A stretch of DNA of 27,737 nucleotides from a virus: positions 1-27,737 of the IMG/VR virus record IMGVR_UViG_3300021197_001133. One strand, given 5' to 3'. The notes under the pieces were generated by a model. That model was not told where the DNA came from. It searched no databases and worked only from the letters and a program-made list of their open reading frames with translations. The translations under genes were made by a program, and so were the position numbers. This document shows positions 11,732 through 19,211 of this stretch, piece by piece; position 1 is the first letter of the stretch, and every line of letters starts with the position of its first letter.

Positions 11732-14700
11732 ATGGCTGACAACTCTTCAAGAAAGTTCAAATTTATATCCCCAGGGGTATTCATCAACGAGATCGATCAA
11801 TCTCAACTGCCCGACACACCTGGCGCAGTTGGACCACTAGTTATCGGCAGATCCAGAAAAGGACCTGCTGATAAACCTGTTACTGTGGATTCCTTTTCTG
11901 ATTTTGTTCAGACATTTGGTAACCCAGTTCCTGGTGCTCAAGGTGGCGATGTATGGCGTGAGGGCAACTTAACTGCTCCTACCTATGCTGCATATGCTGC
12001 CCAGGCATGGCTACAGAATGGTTCACCTTTGACATTTATTCGTGTCTTGGGTGATAACTCAACTAATGCTTCTGACGGTGGTAAAGCTGGCTGGGAAGTT
12101 AGTGACTTTCTTGCCGAAGGTACGGAGATTGCTAAGAACAAAGCCGGCGGTGTCTACGCTCTTTGCGTATGGCCTTATAACGGCTTGGACGCTTCGCCAG
12201 GGGTCCTAACTGGATCAGTGGCTGCTCAGATTTACATGAACAATGGTCGTGTCTTGCTCAAGGGTAACACCGGCTCCACTGCATCTGCTACGTTGACATA
12301 TGTACCCGTCGTCTCCCCGGCAGTAGACCTTGGCGCTAAGCCTCTTGCTCTAACCTTGGGCACTCAAACCTATTCTGCTACTTTTGACTCTGCTGTTTTG
12401 CCAGCGGATTCAACCAGTACCATAATAGGTGTCAAAGACGTCGCTCCCGGTGGCCTCGCTGCGTCAATTGTTAGCAGCCTAAATGCTGCTGCTGCTGCGG
12501 GCTTTCCAGTAGTCGCCGCCGTTGATGCGACCAACCCTCTTGTCGTAAATGTCTTTGGAACCACTATTGGCACTGATGACAATACCGCAACATTTACAAG
12601 TACTGCATTCCCTGCCAAGATGACCACCACTGCTTTTGCCGGCGGCGTCGCTGCCTCGACCGCACAAGACGGATCTACAATATACGAGATCAATGGTCTT
12701 AACGATATCACACTCGTGTTCACGGGCAGTGAAGGCGGTCAATTTTCGGAAGAAGTGACAGTAAGTCTTAATAGGGACCAAGAGAACTTTATTCGTAAAG
12801 CTTTGAATACTAACCCAACAATAACAAACAGTGCAATCACAGACGCTTCATCAAAAGCTTTCTACCAACGAGGTGTTTACTTCCTCGGTGAAACATTTGA
12901 AAACTCTCTAGTTGATAAGACTGCCTCTAACTCCATCGGTGTTCTAGATGGTGGTACTGCTTCTGCTACTAAGTTTTATGCTGCTATGTTGCCAATGGCT
13001 GTTCAGCAAGCTGATGATCTCAAAGCTGCTAAGCAGCAGAGCAACTTCCGTGGCGCTGCTACAAGAGCTTCTACAGGCTGGTTTATTTCTCAGGATCTTA
13101 GTTCCAACAACGCTGGGTACCAAGCAAAGGCTCAACAGAAGCTTTTCCGCCTTGAAGCTCTAAGCGCTGGCGAGTCAACTCAACGGGAAATAAAAATATC
13201 TATTGCTAACATCAAGGCTCCAGAGGGCGACTATCAGGACTACGGTTCCTTCTCTGTGATCATTCGTGATCTCCAGGACACAGATAACCGCCCATCAATC
13301 ATCGAGCGTTATGACGGTGTAACACTAAACCCTGCTGCTGATAGCTATATTGCTAAGCGTATCGGTGACAAGTACATGGTCTATGATGAAAATGACAAGC
13401 GCCTTGTAGAGTACGGCGAGTTTGAAAACAAATCAAACTTTGTTCGTGTTGTCGTAAACGACACCGTCGCTGCTGGTAGCGGTGAACGCCGTTGGTTGCC
13501 TTTCGGCGTCTTCGGTCCTCTCCAGTACCGTAGTGTTGGTATTGTCAGTGGCTCAAGCGGTTTCTCCGTAGATCTAGACACTCCCTTGAAAGCTAATCGT
13601 GGCTCTATGCTCACTATGCTACTTGGTGGCTCTAGTGCTAACTATGGAAACATTGGTCATACAACAGTCTCAACTGATATTGTAGACGTTCCTACCTTCG
13701 GTGGTTATGAACAAAACGCATTTAGCGGATCGATTGTGTTCCCATCTGTACCACTACGTGGTCAGAGCAGTTGGGGTAAGCCAAGGTCTCTTAACAACAC
13801 CTATTGGGGTGCTTGGACAGGCAGATCTGGCGATGATACATTCTTCTCGCAGCAGGTTATTGACTCCTTGAGAGTTCGCTCTGCTGACGTAACATCTTTT
13901 GGCGAAGCTGCTAACCCATCTTCAACAGATTATGATATTGAGGGTGACACTCCAACAAGACAGACTTCCTCCGCACTAGCCATCTCTTGGGTATTCTCCC
14001 TGGATGATGTCCAGCAACCAGCAAGCGGTGTTTTCACATACGCTAGCGGCTCTCGTAATGCTGGTACTGCTATCAGTGCTCAGGTTGGAAACTCTTACAA
14101 GAATGTTCTTACCGGGTCCATTGACCGATTCACGACCACCTTACACGGCGGTTTTGATGGGTATGACATCACTGAGCGTGAACCTTTCGCAAATAGAAAG
14201 ATCGGTTCAACAGAAGAAAGTTCTTATGAACTCTTCAGCTTGAGAAAAGCAATCAACATTGCGTCTGACAAAGACTTTGTTCAGATGAACGCTGTTGCTA
14301 TCCCAGGTGTTTGGAAGAGCGTTGTGACTGATACCCTGCTTGACGTAATCGAAGAGCGTGGCGATGCCCTAGCTCTCGTAGACATCCAGTACGGTTATAC
14401 ACCAAGCACTGAAGACACAGGATCTGCTCAGACTAGAAACGAAGCCAACACGCCTACTCAGGCAGCAAACACATTGGCAGATCGTAGCATCAACAACAGC
14501 TACGGTGCTACATACTATCCTTGGGTTCGTATCTTAGACACAAACACAAACCAGAACTTGTGGGTACCACCAACAGTTCCAGCCTTGGGTGTTCTTTCTT
14601 CTACTGATAGAATCAACGCTCCATGGTTTGCTCCTGCTGGATTCACCCGAGGTGGATTGAGTGAAGGTGCTGCTGGTTTGCCAGTCCTAGATGTTTCTAG

Positions 14701-15142
14701 AAGACTCACATCAGATGATCGTGACAGACTCTACGAAAACAACATTAACCCAATCGCTAAGTTTCCTGCTGAAGGTATCGTAATCTTCGGTCAAAAGACA
14801 CTACAGCAAACAGAATCTGCTCTCGATCGTATCAACGTTCGTCGCTTGATGATCTTCTTGAAGCGTGAGATTTCATTCATCGCTTCCCGCCTCCTTTTCG
14901 GACCAAACGCAAAGGATACTTGGGATCGCTTCTTGGGTCAAGCTGGACCAATCCTAGAGAGTGTTCGTGCTGAGTTTGGTATTGATGACTTCCGTCTAAT
15001 CCTAGACGAAACAACAACAACACCAGACCTCGTTGACCGAAACATTATTTATGCTAAGTTGCTTGTCAAACCTACTCGCTCTGTTGAGTACTTTGCAATC
15101 GACTTCGTGGTTACAAATAGTGGGGCAGCCTTCGAAGACTAA
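11732..15142 (+). CDS. 18: Tail sheath protein gp18, extended
   Basis: Contractile sheath subunit. The N-terminus 'FISPGVFINEIDQS' then 'GPLVIGRSRKGPADKPV' and 'FGNPVPG' (about residues 11-75) is the classic T4-like sheath start, and the C-terminus 'RRLMIFLKREISFIASRLLF' followed by 'GPNAKDTWDRFLGQ' and 'VVTNSGAAFED' is the conserved polymerisation domain. At 1136 aa it is much longer than T4 gp18 (659 aa). Extra material includes an Ala/Thr/Ser-rich, Ig-like stretch at about 165-320 and further large middle segments to about 800, presumably surface-exposed domains. The start follows the SD GGAGAAGGA. It opens the tail operon. Confidence 0.96.
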   Translation: MADNSSRKFKFISPGVFINEIDQSQLPDTPGAVGPLVIGRSRKGPADKPVTVDSFSDFVQTFGNPVPGAQGGDVWREGNLTAPTYAAYAAQAWLQNGSPLTFIRVLGDNSTNASDGGKAGWEVSDFLAEGTEIAKNKAGGVYALCVWPYNGLDASPGVLTGSVAAQIYMNNGRVLLKGNTGSTASATLTYVPVVSPAVDLGAKPLALTLGTQTYSATFDSAVLPADSTSTIIGVKDVAPGGLAASIVSSLNAAAAAGFPVVAAVDATNPLVVNVFGTTIGTDDNTATFTSTAFPAKMTTTAFAGGVAASTAQDGSTIYEINGLNDITLVFTGSEGGQFSEEVTVSLNRDQENFIRKALNTNPTITNSAITDASSKAFYQRGVYFLGETFENSLVDKTASNSIGVLDGGTASATKFYAAMLPMAVQQADDLKAAKQQSNFRGAATRASTGWFISQDLSSNNAGYQAKAQQKLFRLEALSAGESTQREIKISIANIKAPEGDYQDYGSFSVIIRDLQDTDNRPSIIERYDGVTLNPAADSYIAKRIGDKYMVYDENDKRLVEYGEFENKSNFVRVVVNDTVAAGSGERRWLPFGVFGPLQYRSVGIVSGSSGFSVDLDTPLKANRGSMLTMLLGGSSANYGNIGHTTVSTDIVDVPTFGGYEQNAFSGSIVFPSVPLRGQSSWGKPRSLNNTYWGAWTGRSGDDTFFSQQVIDSLRVRSADVTSFGEAANPSSTDYDIEGDTPTRQTSSALAISWVFSLDDVQQPASGVFTYASGSRNAGTAISAQVGNSYKNVLTGSIDRFTTTLHGGFDGYDITEREPFANRKIGSTEESSYELFSLRKAINIASDKDFVQMNAVAIPGVWKSVVTDTLLDVIEERGDALALVDIQYGYTPSTEDTGSAQTRNEANTPTQAANTLADRSINNSYGATYYPWVRILDTNTNQNLWVPPTVPALGVLSSTDRINAPWFAPAGFTRGGLSEGAAGLPVLDVSRRLTSDDRDRLYENNINPIAKFPAEGIVIFGQKTLQQTESALDRINVRRLMIFLKREISFIASRLLFGPNAKDTWDRFLGQAGPILESVRAEFGIDDFRLILDETTTTPDLVDRNIIYAKLLVKPTRSVEYFAIDFVVTNSGAAFED

Positions 15143-15185: not shown

Positions 15186-15752
15186 ATGTCAAGCTTATTT
15201 TGGAATGACGTAAGAACTGAGCCAAAGCGCAGGTTTAGGTTTGAACTTAAGTTTAGTAGCCGAACCCTAGGGCAAGGTGCTATTCCAGTATGGACAATCA
15301 AAACAGCCAGCAAGCCAAAGGCTAACGTCAGTACCATAGAACATCAGTACGTCGATCATACTTTCAAGTATCCAGGTCGTGTAACTTGGGATCCAATTTC
15401 TATCACATTGGTAGATCCAGTGGACCCAGATTTGTCCTATGCTTTCCTAGACGTTCTTGGTGCTTCTGGCTACAAGTTCCCAACCACAGCTTCTAAGTCC
15501 AAGCTAAGCTTGAGCAAGAAGGCTTTCGCTGAACAGATCGGCTCTGTCTTCATCGACCAGATCGACGAAAACGGTGAGATCATCGAACGCTGGGAACTAA
15601 TCAACCCATTCATCACCTCTGTTGACTTTGGCGGAAGCTTAGATTATAGTTCCGATGATATGAACGAAGTAACCGTAGAGGTCACATATGACTGGGCAAG
15701 ACTTACCCAGACCAAGGCTAACGGCAGAGACCAAACATCTGCTGCTGACTAA
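15186..15752 (+). CDS. 19: Tail tube protein gp19
   Basis: 188-aa inner tube subunit (T4 gp19 163 aa), stacked in hexamers on the baseplate and capped by the terminator. Characteristic segments are an N-terminal 'MSSLFWNDVRTEPKRRFRFE', the central 'VDHTFKYPGRVTWDPISITL' (about 56-75) and the C-terminal 'RWELINPF' with 'LDYSSDDMNEVTVEVTYDWA', all typical of T4-like tube proteins. AAGGAG SD, 10 nt before ATG. It directly follows gp18, as in T4. Confidence 0.93.
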   Translation: MSSLFWNDVRTEPKRRFRFELKFSSRTLGQGAIPVWTIKTASKPKANVSTIEHQYVDHTFKYPGRVTWDPISITLVDPVDPDLSYAFLDVLGASGYKFPTTASKSKLSLSKKAFAEQIGSVFIDQIDENGEIIERWELINPFITSVDFGGSLDYSSDDMNEVTVEVTYDWARLTQTKANGRDQTSAAD

Positions 15753-15799: not shown

Positions 15800-16684
15800 A
15801 TGAGTCGCAACGAAAATAGAACAGGTTTTCCTGAAGATTTTACTCCCCAAGACGATACACCAACTCCTGCTGTTGCTGCAACGGTAGGCGCTGGTGTGCC
15901 TGGTCCACAACCAACATTTGCATGGTCAGTGCCAACTGAGTTTGTAGCATTGCCAAGTGGTGGACGCTTTTACCCACAAAACCATCCCCTTCATAATAAG
16001 ACCTCGGTAGAGATCCGATATATGACTGCTAAGGAAGAAGACATTCTTACTTCCCGTGCTTTGCTTAAAGAGGGTGTGGCTCTTGACAGAATGTTACAGA
16101 GTTTGATTATCGAAGAGGGTGTCCGTATCGACACCTTACTCATTGGTGACAAGAACGCTCTTTTAGTAGCAGCAAGAAGAACAGGATACGGAGCGGATTA
16201 CACTACATCAGTGACTTGCCCATCTTGCGGCAACACAGATGAGTTTGAATTTGACATTACAGACCCTTCAGTAACTGAGTACGAACAGAACATTGAAAAG
16301 AACGCTGTTGTCCTCACAGATGAAGGGAACCTATTAATAACTTTACCAATGACAAACGCAGTCGTTGAGTGTAAGATGTTAACAGGCGCTGATGAGATGA
16401 GACTATACAAAGAATCAGAGCGCAAGGCTAAGAGAAAACAAGCCACAGGCACTATGACAGATATGTTCAGAAGCTACATTGTTAGCGTTAACGGTCAGGA
16501 GTCACCAATAGTCGTTGAATCCTTCATTCAGGCACTTCCAGCAAGAGATGGTCGAATCCTTCGAAACACCTATTCAGCTTGCGTGCCCAACATCGACTTG
16601 ACACAAGAGTTTGATTGCACTAGTTGCGGTCATACAGCGGACATGGAGGTTCCGCTTTCTGCGGACTTTTTTTGGCCTAAGTGA
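15800..16684 (+). CDS. 26: gp26-family baseplate hub / tail assembly protein
   Basis: 294-aa member of the T4_baseplate family (PF12322 by recollection, T4 gp26). A Pro/Ala-rich N-terminus (1-40) is followed by 'VALPSGGRFYPQNHPLHNKT' (49-68), 'MTAKEEDILTSRALLK' (75-90) and 'GDKNALLVAARRTGYG' (116-131). Two CxxC pairs, CPSC (140-143) and CTSC (273-276), suggest a bound zinc. In T4, gp26 is required for baseplate hub assembly. The gene sits between tube and tape-measure-like genes, where other tailed phages encode the tail-assembly chaperone with a programmed frameshift. The final codons run through seven Ts (16667-16673), and a +1 (or -2) shift there would enter the next ORF. Confidence 0.9.
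   Translation: MSRNENRTGFPEDFTPQDDTPTPAVAATVGAGVPGPQPTFAWSVPTEFVALPSGGRFYPQNHPLHNKTSVEIRYMTAKEEDILTSRALLKEGVALDRMLQSLIIEEGVRIDTLLIGDKNALLVAARRTGYGADYTTSVTCPSCGNTDEFEFDITDPSVTEYEQNIEKNAVVLTDEGNLLITLPMTNAVVECKMLTGADEMRLYKESERKAKRKQATGTMTDMFRSYIVSVNGQESPIVVESFIQALPARDGRILRNTYSACVPNIDLTQEFDCTSCGHTADMEVPLSADFFWPK
16667..16673 (+). promoter_or_regulatory. Candidate programmed frameshift site (T7 run)
   Basis: Seven Ts, read TTT TTT TGG in the gp26 frame, four codons before the gp26 stop. Slipping +1 (UUU to the overlapping UUU) or -2 places the ribosome in the frame of the ORF that runs to 16886, joining ...ADFF to GLSDQYIES... The downstream frame has no ATG, GTG or TTG between the site and the conserved part of that ORF, so a shift is the simplest way to translate it. 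Confidence 0.6.
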
Positions 16685-16886
16685 TCAATACATAGAGAGC
16701 GTTTACGAGCAGATATTCCAACTTAAATATTATGGAGGTTGGAGTTTCTTTGAGTCGTATAACCTTCCTGTCAGCGTTAGAGTCTGGTTCCTGAACCGCT
16801 TAGCGGAACAAAAAAACCAAGAACAAGAAGCGCAATCTAAAACATTAACCAGTTCAAGTGGTCGAGGCAAGAGGTATACTCCGTAA
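16674..16886 (+). CDS. Frameshift extension of gp26 (70 aa)
   Basis: Open frame that continues gp26 in the +1 frame after the T run. It encodes 'GLSDQYIESVYEQIFQLKYY' followed by 'GGWSFFESYNLPVSVRVWFL' and a Gln/Glu/Ser-rich basic tail. Aromatic-rich 'YYGGWSFFESYNLP' followed by an Arg/Trp/Leu helix recalls the short second domains of tail-assembly chaperone pairs. The only in-frame initiator is a TTG at 16611 inside gp26 with a poor SD, which would add about 20 unrelated residues. With frameshifting the long product would be about 361 aa. Lack of a local start, the position before the tape-measure-like gene and the slippery run are seen directly; the chaperone function is inferred. Confidence 0.7.
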   Translation, partial: GLSDQYIESVYEQIFQLKYYGGWSFFESYNLPVSVRVWFLNRLAEQKNQEQEAQSKTLTSSSGRGKRYTP

Positions 16887-16937: not shown

Positions 16938-17267
16938 GTGCAAATCGATTTTGAAAATGATGTTTTAGATCTTACCAAGCTTCGAGGTAACCAACTCAAT
17001 GAGAATATTCTCCACGTCTTTGCAGCGTGGATTGAGTATCTCTTATCTAAAATGTTCAAAGGCAGACGAGTTCCTGTACGAGTTAAAGGGAACAGAATAG
17101 AAGTAGAAAGATTTACCGATGCCTTGGTAAACGAGAAGAAGTACCTTGACTTCATTAAGAAATATGGTCTAGATGATCCGATGACTTACAAGCAGAAAGC
17201 TAAACTTCAGCTTGCTATCAAAAGATTCGAGACCGAAGCCGGTATCAACTGGCCCATCAAAGGGTAG
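16938..17267 (+). CDS. Unrecognised 109-aa tail-module protein
   Basis: Starts at GTG with the strong SD AAGGGGG (16924-16930). The protein is soluble and helical: 'NENILHVFAAWIEYLLSKMF' (about 21-40), a basic strand pair 'VRVKGNRIEVERFTDALV' (47-64), then 'NEKKYLDFIKKYGLDDPMTY' and 'KAKLQLAIKRFETEAGINWP'. I believe similar proteins occur next to tape-measure genes in related phages, but I can name no function. It lies between the gp26 frameshift ORF and the tape-measure-like gene, with a 9-nt gap to the latter, so a tail-assembly role is likely. Confidence 0.8.
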   Translation: MQIDFENDVLDLTKLRGNQLNENILHVFAAWIEYLLSKMFKGRRVPVRVKGNRIEVERFTDALVNEKKYLDFIKKYGLDDPMTYKQKAKLQLAIKRFETEAGINWPIKG

Positions 17268-17276
17268 GGCTAGGTC

Positions 17277-19211
17277 ATGGCAAATGAAGGCTTAAAAGAA
17301 CAGTTAGACCTGCTGAAGCAGCAAAATGCGGTGATCAAAAAGCAAACTCGACTCGTTGAAGATCTTGATAAAATCAAGGAGAAGACCCCCCAGCAGCAAG
17401 CCGACTATGATGAGGCTGTAAAAAATCTTAGAGAGTTTCAAGATGAGTTGGAGGAGACAACTAAGAAGGTAGAGAAAAACAAAAAAGCCATATCTAATTA
17501 CAACTCGGCTTTAGATGAAACAGCCAGCACAGTAGGAAACCTAGTTCCAGGCATCGGTAAAGTCACTTCTGCGTTCAAAAAGAACGAAGAAGGTATAATC
17601 GATATTACAAAGGCTGCTGACTCGTTTATTGCAGGTATGTTCTCTATGATGAAGACCATCGAAGAGACCAATGTAGCGCTGGCAAAACAAACAGGCTTTG
17701 CCACGGCTTTACAGCAAGATGTTTTAGATTTGGCCAACAGCCATGACGGCTTGTACTTATCAATGTCAGAGAGTAAAGAAGTTGTAGGATCACTATCTAC
17801 AGGATTCAAGATGTACAATGCCCAAAGCAAACAGACTCGTGGAGAGATAAACGATCTTGCCGGTCGATTTAAAGTCCTTGGGGTTGATACGAATACCTTT
17901 GCAACCGTACTTGACCAATTGAACGAGGGCTTTGGTCTAACGGGTGCTGGCGCTCTTGCTGCTGCCGCAGAACTAGAAAACCTAGCCATCAGAACAGGTT
18001 CTCCCCTATCCTCTGTTGTAAATGACTTCCAAGATCTTGGCCCACAGATGTCTCGATTCGGGTCAGATGGTGTTCGTGTCTTTACAAGGTTGAATGAACA
18101 AGCTAGAACACTAGGCTTGACAACACGCCAGGCTTTTGATCTTTCGGAATTATTTGATACCTTTGAGAGTTCTGCTGATGTTGCTGGGAAGCTTAACGCC
18201 CAGCTAGGTTTGCAGCTTAATTCTGTTGAACTTATGGCAGCCTCGTCTGAAGATAGACTTAAGATTCTGCGTGCAGAGTTTGATATGGAAGGCATGAGGT
18301 TTGATCAAATGGGTCGTCGTCAAAGACAAATGATCGCTGAGATCTTACAGACGGATGTTTTGACCGCAGAGAAGCTACTCGGCGACCCAATGGCAATGCG
18401 TGAGTTCCAAAAGGAACAAGAAAATAATGCAGAGAGAGTGCAAAAGTTCACAACAGCTATGGATAAGTTCAAAGCTGTCGCTGAGCAGTTGTTTATAAAT
18501 CTTGCACCGGTTATGACTAGTATTTTATCTGTGTTTAACTCGATCGCCGAGGTTCTCAACACTGTCATGTCTAGCGGTCTTGGGATGATAATCAGTAAAA
18601 TGATGATGTTTGGCGCTATTATTATAAAAGTAGCCGGCTATATGAAAGGGTTTTTTGCTCCTCTTGGGTACGGTCTCAAAATTATATCAATGGCGCTGGG
18701 AACAGTTCTTTCTGTTTTCCTCTTAATAAAGGACCTTGCCCAGTCGTTTGGTCTCTTTACGGACAGCAAAGGTCAAAGTGATGCCCAAGCCCGATTAACC
18801 GGCGGTCTGGGCGGCGCTGCGATCGGTGGTGCTGGCGGCGCTGTCTTTGCCGGTCTCGGTGCAATCCCCGGCGCAGCGCTTGGCTACTCTATCGGAAGAG
18901 AGGTGCCCTCAGCCATCGCCGGCGACCTTAATGGAAGACCGGGAGCGGTTCGTTCTGTCACTTCTATGAACGGTCAAACTTACAATATCAGTCCAGAAGA
19001 TGGCATCAAAGTTTCTCCAAGGGTCGGGGGACTAGAAAATATGGATCAGACGACAGGCAAACTCGACAAGGTCGTCAATATCCTTGAAAAGATATACAGT
19101 AAAGATCAGAACACGTACCTAGATGGAACTCTAATGTCGAAGAAGCTTGGTAGCAACCCAACGATGCAAGAAAGAGTCCTTGCCGGTACTACTCCTGCTC
19201 GTATGGCATAA
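17277..19211 (+). CDS. Tape-measure-like tail protein (gp29 position)
   Basis: 644-aa protein with the composition expected of a tail tape measure: an N-terminal Lys/Glu/Gln coiled coil (1-75), a long mainly helical body, a hydrophobic region (about 430-490, including 'GMIISKMMMFGAIIIKVAGY' and 'LGTVLSVFLLIKDL') able to insert in a membrane, a Gly/Ala-rich segment (about 505-545) and a C-terminal part that may contact the hub ('NISPEDGIKVSPRVGG'). Tape measures set tail length and are ejected first during infection. T4 gp29 is 590 aa. No lytic domain is evident. The gene starts 9 nt after the previous stop and follows the gp26/frameshift pair, the normal order. Confidence 0.78.
   Translation: MANEGLKEQLDLLKQQNAVIKKQTRLVEDLDKIKEKTPQQQADYDEAVKNLREFQDELEETTKKVEKNKKAISNYNSALDETASTVGNLVPGIGKVTSAFKKNEEGIIDITKAADSFIAGMFSMMKTIEETNVALAKQTGFATALQQDVLDLANSHDGLYLSMSESKEVVGSLSTGFKMYNAQSKQTRGEINDLAGRFKVLGVDTNTFATVLDQLNEGFGLTGAGALAAAAELENLAIRTGSPLSSVVNDFQDLGPQMSRFGSDGVRVFTRLNEQARTLGLTTRQAFDLSELFDTFESSADVAGKLNAQLGLQLNSVELMAASSEDRLKILRAEFDMEGMRFDQMGRRQRQMIAEILQTDVLTAEKLLGDPMAMREFQKEQENNAERVQKFTTAMDKFKAVAEQLFINLAPVMTSILSVFNSIAEVLNTVMSSGLGMIISKMMMFGAIIIKVAGYMKGFFAPLGYGLKIISMALGTVLSVFLLIKDLAQSFGLFTDSKGQSDAQARLTGGLGGAAIGGAGGAVFAGLGAIPGAALGYSIGREVPSAIAGDLNGRPGAVRSVTSMNGQTYNISPEDGIKVSPRVGGLENMDQTTGKLDKVVNILEKIYSKDQNTYLDGTLMSKKLGSNPTMQERVLAGTTPARMA

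What the first reader, a model, noticed from the sequence alone, without database searches (positions are those of the whole stretch)
15800..16886. Programmed frameshift at the gp26 locus, resembling a G/GT tail-assembly chaperone pair
The gp26 gene ends four codons after a run of seven Ts; the overlapping +1 frame continues for 70 codons with a structured, aromatic-rich sequence and no nearby start codon. The pair lies between the tube gene and the tape-measure-like gene, exactly where lambda-type phages make gpG and gpGT by frameshifting. This would recast T4 gp26-family proteins as tail-assembly chaperones.
Basis: partly seen in the sequence, partly recalled or inferred. Interest (0 to 1): 0.8.

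Follow-up and report, generated by a model that had tools for sequence, protein, structure and literature searches.

The report
Frameshifted tail-assembly chaperone of T4-like phage
This phage gene makes a short tail-assembly chaperone and, when ribosomes skip one base at a run of seven Ts, a longer version; the arrangement is conserved in dozens of related phages, was already proposed for T4-like phages in 2022, and has a seemingly unreported cousin in bacterial and archaeal contractile injection systems.

Summary
gp26 (15800-16684) carries UUU UUU UGG at 16667-16675, four codons before its stop, and the +1 frame stays open to 16886. In 85 loci (80-contig search, window, five phage-collection loci), 82 keep an in-frame UUU followed by U or C at this spot with the second ORF in the +1 frame. 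Three related contigs instead keep it in the -1 frame behind a canonical A_AAU_UUC heptamer. The second ORF is under purifying selection (pN/pS 0.09 to the nearest relative; 109 of 109 pairs below 1) and has no conserved start. Variants such as UUUCUUUGG and UUUCUAUUC argue for ribosomal +1 slippage of tRNA-Phe from UUU to UUY, and against transcriptional slippage or a -2 shift.

Vladimirov, Gautam and Davidson (Virology 2022) identified T4-like tail assembly chaperones, so the window is a new member of a known kind. I could not compare the +1 direction and the switch to -1 with that paper, which is not held.

Side finding: homologous pairs in extracellular contractile injection systems carry a G_GGG_GAR slippery site with DUF6760 in the -1 frame (85 loci, Bacteria and Archaea). 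I found no report of it.

The parts
11732..15142 (+). tail sheath gene (1136 aa)
   Evidence: PF17482 1.5e-8, PF04984 1.4e-6; homologue upstream of gp26 in 73 of 84 loci
15186..15752 (+). tail tube gene (gp19-like)
   Evidence: phrog_4542 1.5e-24; homologue upstream of gp26 in 71 of 84 loci
15800..16684 (+). gp26-family gene, short form of the tail assembly chaperone (TAC-N), with two CxxC zinc-ribbon-like pairs
   Evidence: PF12322 4.2e-16, phrog_150 9.6e-16; AlphaFold2 model pLDDT 89, pTM 0.81
16667..16675 (+). slippery site UUU UUU UGG; inferred +1 slip of peptidyl-tRNA-Phe on UUU_U
   Evidence: 82 of 85 loci keep in-frame UUU followed by U or C
16673..16684 (+). frame-0 tail W-P-K-stop of the short form
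   Evidence: FFWP conserved in frame 0
16668..16886 (+). +1-frame ORF encoding the C-terminal domain of the long form (TAC-C); joined product 361 aa (P0003)
   Evidence: conserved in 68 aligned loci, pN/pS 0.09 to L001, predicted helices 6-23, 27-31, 35-63, DUF6760 matches in 38 of 68 members, best 3e-5
16938..17267 (+). 109-aa ORF of unknown function between the chaperone pair and the tape measure gene
   Evidence: tblastn homologues in 33 loci at the same place
17277..19211 (+). tape measure protein gene
   Evidence: phrog_167 1.8e-15, PF20155 8.8e-5, below its cut-off

Best explanation
The locus encodes a tail assembly chaperone in two forms. Most ribosomes read gp26 to its stop and make the short form (TAC-N, 294 aa). 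A minority, on reaching UUU UUU UGG, slip +1: peptidyl-tRNA-Phe re-pairs from UUU to the overlapping UUU or UUC. They then continue ...ADFFGLSDQ... for 70 codons to make the long form (TAC-NC, 361 aa). By analogy with lambda gpG/gpGT, many short copies coat the tape measure protein, while the helical C-terminal domain of the rarer long form recruits tube subunits; neither stays in the tail. Shown here: both ORFs are coding and conserved, the frame relation and UUU_Y site are conserved, and gene order is conserved. Inferred: that frameshifting occurs, its rate, the tRNA-Phe mechanism, and the chaperone role.
For: Site tally in 85 loci: TTTTTTTGG 66, TTTCTTTGG 8, TTCTTTTGG 3, five single variants that all keep UUU_Y, and three TTCTTCTGG that use the -1 frame. 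On a tree of 79 gp26 proteins TTTCTTTGG needs 5 changes (at least 4 forced by strong branches) and TTCTTTTGG needs 3, so the UUU_Y rule survived repeated sequence change. The second ORF has pN/pS below 1 in all 109 pairs. 52 of 78 loci have no ATG, and 26 no ATG, GTG or TTG, for the second ORF up to 15 codons in; conservation starts at FFGL, at the slip site. One clade (L069, L071, L075) put the second ORF in the -1 frame behind A_AAU_UUC, so selection is on the fusion, not on the T run. Order sheath-tube-gp26-ORF2-tape measure is conserved. The best-probability PDB match of the gp26 model is HK97 tail assembly chaperone 2ob9, though not significant (E 0.77, prob 0.30). T4 gp51 is a PF12322 protein with an extra C-terminal stretch, and 10 of 68 second ORFs match the gp51 family phrog_634, best 0.0016.
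Against: No experiment here shows a frameshift product. +1 sites usually need a stimulator, and none is clear: downstream folding z is only -0.8 on average, and SD-like 4-mers occur upstream in 35 of 85 loci. HK97 chaperone similarity is not statistically significant. The T4 gp51 C-terminus matches only weakly. The window's own second ORF has no DUF6760 match, and the relatives' matches that were printed lie below Pfam's cut-off.
Confidence: 0.88

Rival explanations
1. Transcriptional slippage: RNA polymerase adds or drops bases on T7, giving mRNA in which gp26 and the second ORF are fused.
For: T7 is long enough for some polymerases to slip, and 66 of 85 loci have it.
Against: Loci with T3CT3 (8), TTCTTTTGG (3), TTTCTATTC and TTCTTTCGT have no long homopolymer, yet the second ORF stays in the +1 frame. 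The -1 clade has no long run at all.
Confidence: 0.05
2. A -2 ribosomal frameshift, giving ADFFFGLSDQ rather than ADFFGLSDQ.
For: On an unbroken T7, -2 and +1 reach the same frame; -2 shifts at GUU_UUU are known in eukaryotic viruses (mentioned in PMC10885494).
Against: At TTTCTTTGG, TTTCTATTC and TTCTTTCGT a -2 move would leave the tRNA badly mispaired, while +1 from UUU to UUC is cognate for tRNA-Phe.
Confidence: 0.04
3. The second ORF is a separate gene translated by coupled re-initiation near the gp26 stop.
For: Some loci have GTG, TTG or ATG codons upstream in that frame; the window has a TTG at 16611.
Against: 26 of 78 loci have no start codon of any kind up to 15 codons into the ORF. 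Conserved residues begin at the slip site, and start positions differ between relatives.
Confidence: 0.05
4. The pair is frameshifted as described but acts in baseplate hub assembly rather than as a tape measure chaperone.
For: T4 genetics place gp26 and gp51 in hub assembly (PMC3004832); Pfam and PHROG names are 'baseplate hub'. The T4 tape measure gp29 is itself part of the hub pathway, so the two readings overlap.
Against: Position beside the tube and tape measure genes and the short/long form scheme are those of tail assembly chaperones (PMC5009743).
Confidence: 0.15

Closest known systems
T4-like phage tail assembly chaperones, T4 gp26 and gp51 (Vladimirov, Gautam and Davidson 2022, Virology 566:9-15)
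   Same: Same protein family (PF12322) and same short/long scheme. Citing papers say some T4-like phages carry a short gene plus a separate longer gene (PMC10885494) and that T4-like TAC-N genes have poly-T slippery sites (PMC12846349). From memory of the abstract, frameshifting is described there for several T4-like groups.
   Different: T4 itself has gp26 and gp51 as separate divergent genes; the window uses one gene with a +1 shift. PMC12846349 calls the T4-like sites -1. I could not read the 2022 paper to see which direction it reports.
Lambda gpG/gpGT and similar tail assembly chaperones
   Same: Short protein plus frameshift-extended form, encoded between the tail tube and tape measure genes (PMC5009743).
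   Different: Lambda shifts -1; the window shifts +1. No significant sequence similarity was found; fold match to the HK97 chaperone is only suggestive.
Halorubrum myovirus HSTV-2 chaperone
   Same: Described as very likely +1 frameshifting in a contractile-tailed virus (PMC5009743).
   Different: Not compared at sequence level here.
DUF6760 (PF20546) and the 'phage tail assembly protein' of extracellular contractile injection systems
   Same: Profile comparison links the short forms (E 2e-7, prob 94) and C-terminal domains (E 6e-5, prob 65); same position after the tube gene.
   Different: Shift is -1 at G_GGG_GAR with an SD-like element and a downstream hairpin.

Membership tests
Tail assembly chaperone (G/GT type) | gene pair lies between the tail tube and tape measure genes | tested here: met
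Tail assembly chaperone (G/GT type) | second ORF overlaps the 3' end of the first in another frame, with a conserved slippery site and no own start | tested here: met
Tail assembly chaperone (G/GT type) | -1 direction of the shift, as in lambda (common, not defining: HSTV-2 is likely +1) | tested here: not met
   window and 81 other loci are +1; three loci are -1
Tail assembly chaperone (G/GT type) | fold like solved tail assembly chaperones | tested here: inconclusive
   2ob9 HK97 chaperone is the best-probability PDB match, E 0.77
Tail assembly chaperone (G/GT type) | binds tape measure protein; both forms absent from the virion | not testable with these tools
   needs binding assays and virion proteomics
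T4 gp26 family (PF12322) | profile match over the curated cut-off | tested here: met
   59.7 bits against 24.5
T4 gp51 as the long form | C-terminal extension of gp51 homologous to the +1 ORF | tested here: inconclusive
   phrog_634 hits in 10 of 68, best 0.0016; joined profile against gp51 E 5e-4, prob 31; C-terminal domain alone not significant
DUF6760 (PF20546) | profile match over the curated cut-off of 27 bits | tested here: not met
   the window protein has no match; 38 of 68 relatives match at E up to 5, best 3e-5, individually printed ones 12-14 bits; profile-profile E 6e-5

The most novel reading that the evidence does not exclude
One ancient chaperone with two forms, made by programmed frameshifting, serves both T4-like phage tails and extracellular contractile injection systems of Bacteria and Archaea. 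The direction and slippery site have been swapped in evolution: +1 on UUU_Y in most T4-like relatives, -1 on A_AAU_UUC in one phage clade, and -1 on G_GGG_GAR with an SD-like element and a hairpin in the injection systems. DUF6760 would then not be a separate gene product but the frameshifted end of the injection system's assembly chaperone.
Probability: 0.7. Interest if true: 0.75.

Novelty: new member of a known kind. Interest (0 to 1): 0.52.

Why it matters
For phages, it extends a chaperone scheme, long thought absent from the T4 lineage (PMC5009743), to a broad set of environmental contigs. It also gives a sharp sequence rule (in-frame UUU_Y) for a poorly understood class of +1 frameshift, and corrects annotation: the second ORF is usually missed or started at a wrong ATG. 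The link to injection systems would add a missing assembly factor and a recoding event to machines that are being engineered for protein delivery.

Tried and rejected
The C-terminal domain model had no useful PDB match. Neither half has a significant PDB sequence relative. DUF6760 as the Cis6 spike plug of the Anabaena system was considered, since three copies of Cis6 are described as plugging the spike (PMC8894136). It was set aside because a DUF6760 sequence had no PDB match better than E 1.1, although an atomic model of that system is published. An SD-like GGAGG upstream of the window's T run was considered as a stimulator, but SD-like 4-mers are absent in 50 of 85 loci and the spacing fits no +1 stimulator I know of. 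Single-sequence profile comparison with T4 gp51 and gp26 gave nothing. The window has no tRNA genes that could tune decoding.

Full report
What is there. The window is a 27.7-kb virus record (IMG/VR) with a T4-type head and tail operon. The gp26 gene (15800-16684) matches Pfam T4_baseplate at 4e-16 and PHROG 'baseplate hub' at 1e-15. It lies directly after the tail tube gene and upstream of a tape measure gene. Its last codons are GAC TTT TTT TGG CCT AAG TGA. The +1 frame is open through that point and runs to 16886.

Is it more than chance? A scan of IMG/VR gave 80 relatives at 35-90% identity. With the window and five loci from the phage collection, 85 could be read across the junction. The site is TTTTTTTGG in 66, TTTCTTTGG in 8, TTCTTTTGG in 3 and TTCTTCTGG in 3. 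Five single variants complete the set: TTTTTTCCT, TTTTTTCGG, TTTTTTCAC, TTCTTTCGT and TTTCTATTC. Where enough sequence follows, 76 of 79 loci have at least 50 open codons in the +1 frame. The three exceptions are the TTCTTCTGG contigs. The second ORF aligns across 68 loci with consensus FFGL...Y...YE.IF.L.Y.GGWSF.E.YNLPV.LR.W. Pairwise pN/pS is 0.09 for the window against its nearest relative, with a median of 0.27 and a maximum of 0.63 over 109 pairs. It is a protein-coding segment under purifying selection.

How is it translated? 52 of 78 loci have no ATG in the second frame between the upstream stop and codon 15. 26 of them have no ATG, GTG or TTG either. Conservation begins exactly at the slip site. 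Separate initiation is therefore unlikely, and fusion to gp26 is the natural reading.

Which shift? On T7 alone, +1, -2 and transcriptional slippage cannot be told apart. The variants can. In 82 of 85 loci there is an in-frame UUU followed by U or C, so tRNA-Phe can slip +1 from UUU to UUY and stay cognate. A -2 move or polymerase slippage does not work at TTTCTTTGG, TTTCTATTC or TTCTTTCGT. On a tree of 79 gp26 proteins, TTTCTTTGG needs 5 changes (at least 4 forced by starred branches) and TTCTTTTGG needs 3. The rule has thus been kept through repeated independent substitutions. In L069, L071 and L075 the UUU_Y rule is broken (TTC TTC TGG). There the second ORF lies in the -1 frame and the preceding bases read A AAT TTC, a canonical -1 heptamer (my reading of the printed sequence). 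That clade is one well-supported branch (100/97). It shows that the fused product, not the T run, is what selection keeps. No clear stimulator was found for the +1 site: downstream folding z is -0.8 on average, and SD-like 4-mers occur upstream in 35 of 85 loci.

What does it do? Sheath and tube homologues lie upstream in 73 and 71 of 84 loci, and tape measure or 109-aa ORF homologues lie downstream where detectable. The AlphaFold2 model of the short form is confident (pLDDT 89, pTM 0.81). Its best-probability PDB match is the HK97 tail assembly chaperone, but not significantly so (E 0.77, prob 0.30). The C-terminal domain is predicted as three helices. Position, two-form design and family make a lambda G/GT-like tail assembly chaperone the best explanation.

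Relation to T4. In T4, genes 26 and 51 are divergent neighbours. Both are PF12322 proteins, and gp51 has an extra C-terminal stretch of about 48 residues. Ten of 68 second ORFs match the gp51 PHROG, best 0.0016, and the one match printed with positions is to its C-terminal half. The joined profile matches gp51 relatives with E 5e-4 but only 31% probability. This fits gp26 as the short form and gp51 as the long form, without proving it from my data alone.

Prior knowledge. Vladimirov, Gautam and Davidson (Virology 2022, doi 10.1016/j.virol.2021.11.003) published the identification of T4-like tail assembly chaperone genes. The paper is not held. I rely on its title and on two citing papers (PMC12846349; PMC10885494). 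From memory, its abstract says that frameshifting is conserved in several T4-like groups, while T4 itself uses separate genes 26 and 51. The window therefore belongs to a known kind. PMC12846349 describes T4-like poly-T sites as -1, whereas the loci here are +1; whether the 2022 paper already noted this I cannot tell.

Beyond the window. Pfam DUF6760 matched 38 of 68 second ORFs. DUF6760 proteins sit after the 'phage tail assembly protein' in extracellular contractile injection systems. In 85 readable loci from Bacteria and Archaea, the DUF6760 frame is the -1 frame of that upstream ORF. At the end of the upstream ORF, 70 loci read G GGG GAR and 5 read G GGG GGA; in 79 of 85 the detected slip motif lies within two codons of the stop, and 72 have no start codon nearby. 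An SD-like 4-mer lies 9-20 nt (most often 12) upstream in 65 of 79. Downstream folding averages z -2.8, with 52 of 65 below -2, and a hairpin is shared by 14 diverged loci with limited covariation (two pairs with compensatory change). Many loci are Nostoc relatives, so these counts overstate independence. The upstream protein and the DUF6760 domain match the phage short form (E 2e-7) and C-terminal domain (E 6e-5) by profile comparison. Searches for papers linking contractile injection systems to frameshifting found none on this (only open-licence papers are searchable). Neither shift has been tested experimentally here.

Verdict. Observation confirmed; interpretation supported; novelty modest for the phage locus. 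The injection-system cassette is the more surprising lead.

Noticed in passing
L089-L174: Extracellular contractile injection systems of Bacteria and Archaea: the DUF6760 ORF lies in the -1 frame of the preceding tail assembly protein gene, with G_GGG_GAR just before the stop, an SD-like element about 12 nt upstream and a conserved hairpin downstream. It looks like a complete -1 programmed frameshift cassette that I did not find reported.
   Followed up: yes
L069:2525-2560, L071:3464-3500, L075 same region: A phage clade that replaced the +1 UUU_Y site by a canonical -1 heptamer A_AAU_UUC, with the second ORF moved to the -1 frame.
   Followed up: partly
window 16938-17267: A 109-aa ORF with GTG start between the chaperone pair and the tape measure gene; homologues in 33 related loci at the same place, no family match.
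   Followed up: partly
L082:4333-4443 (Flavobacterium phage immuto) and L085:4234-4470 (Microcystis phage Mel-JY01): Public annotations call fragments of the frameshifted second ORF as small separate hypothetical genes.
   Followed up: partly
window 11732-15142: Unusually long tail sheath protein (1136 aa) whose Pfam sheath domains match only its C-terminal part.
   Followed up: no
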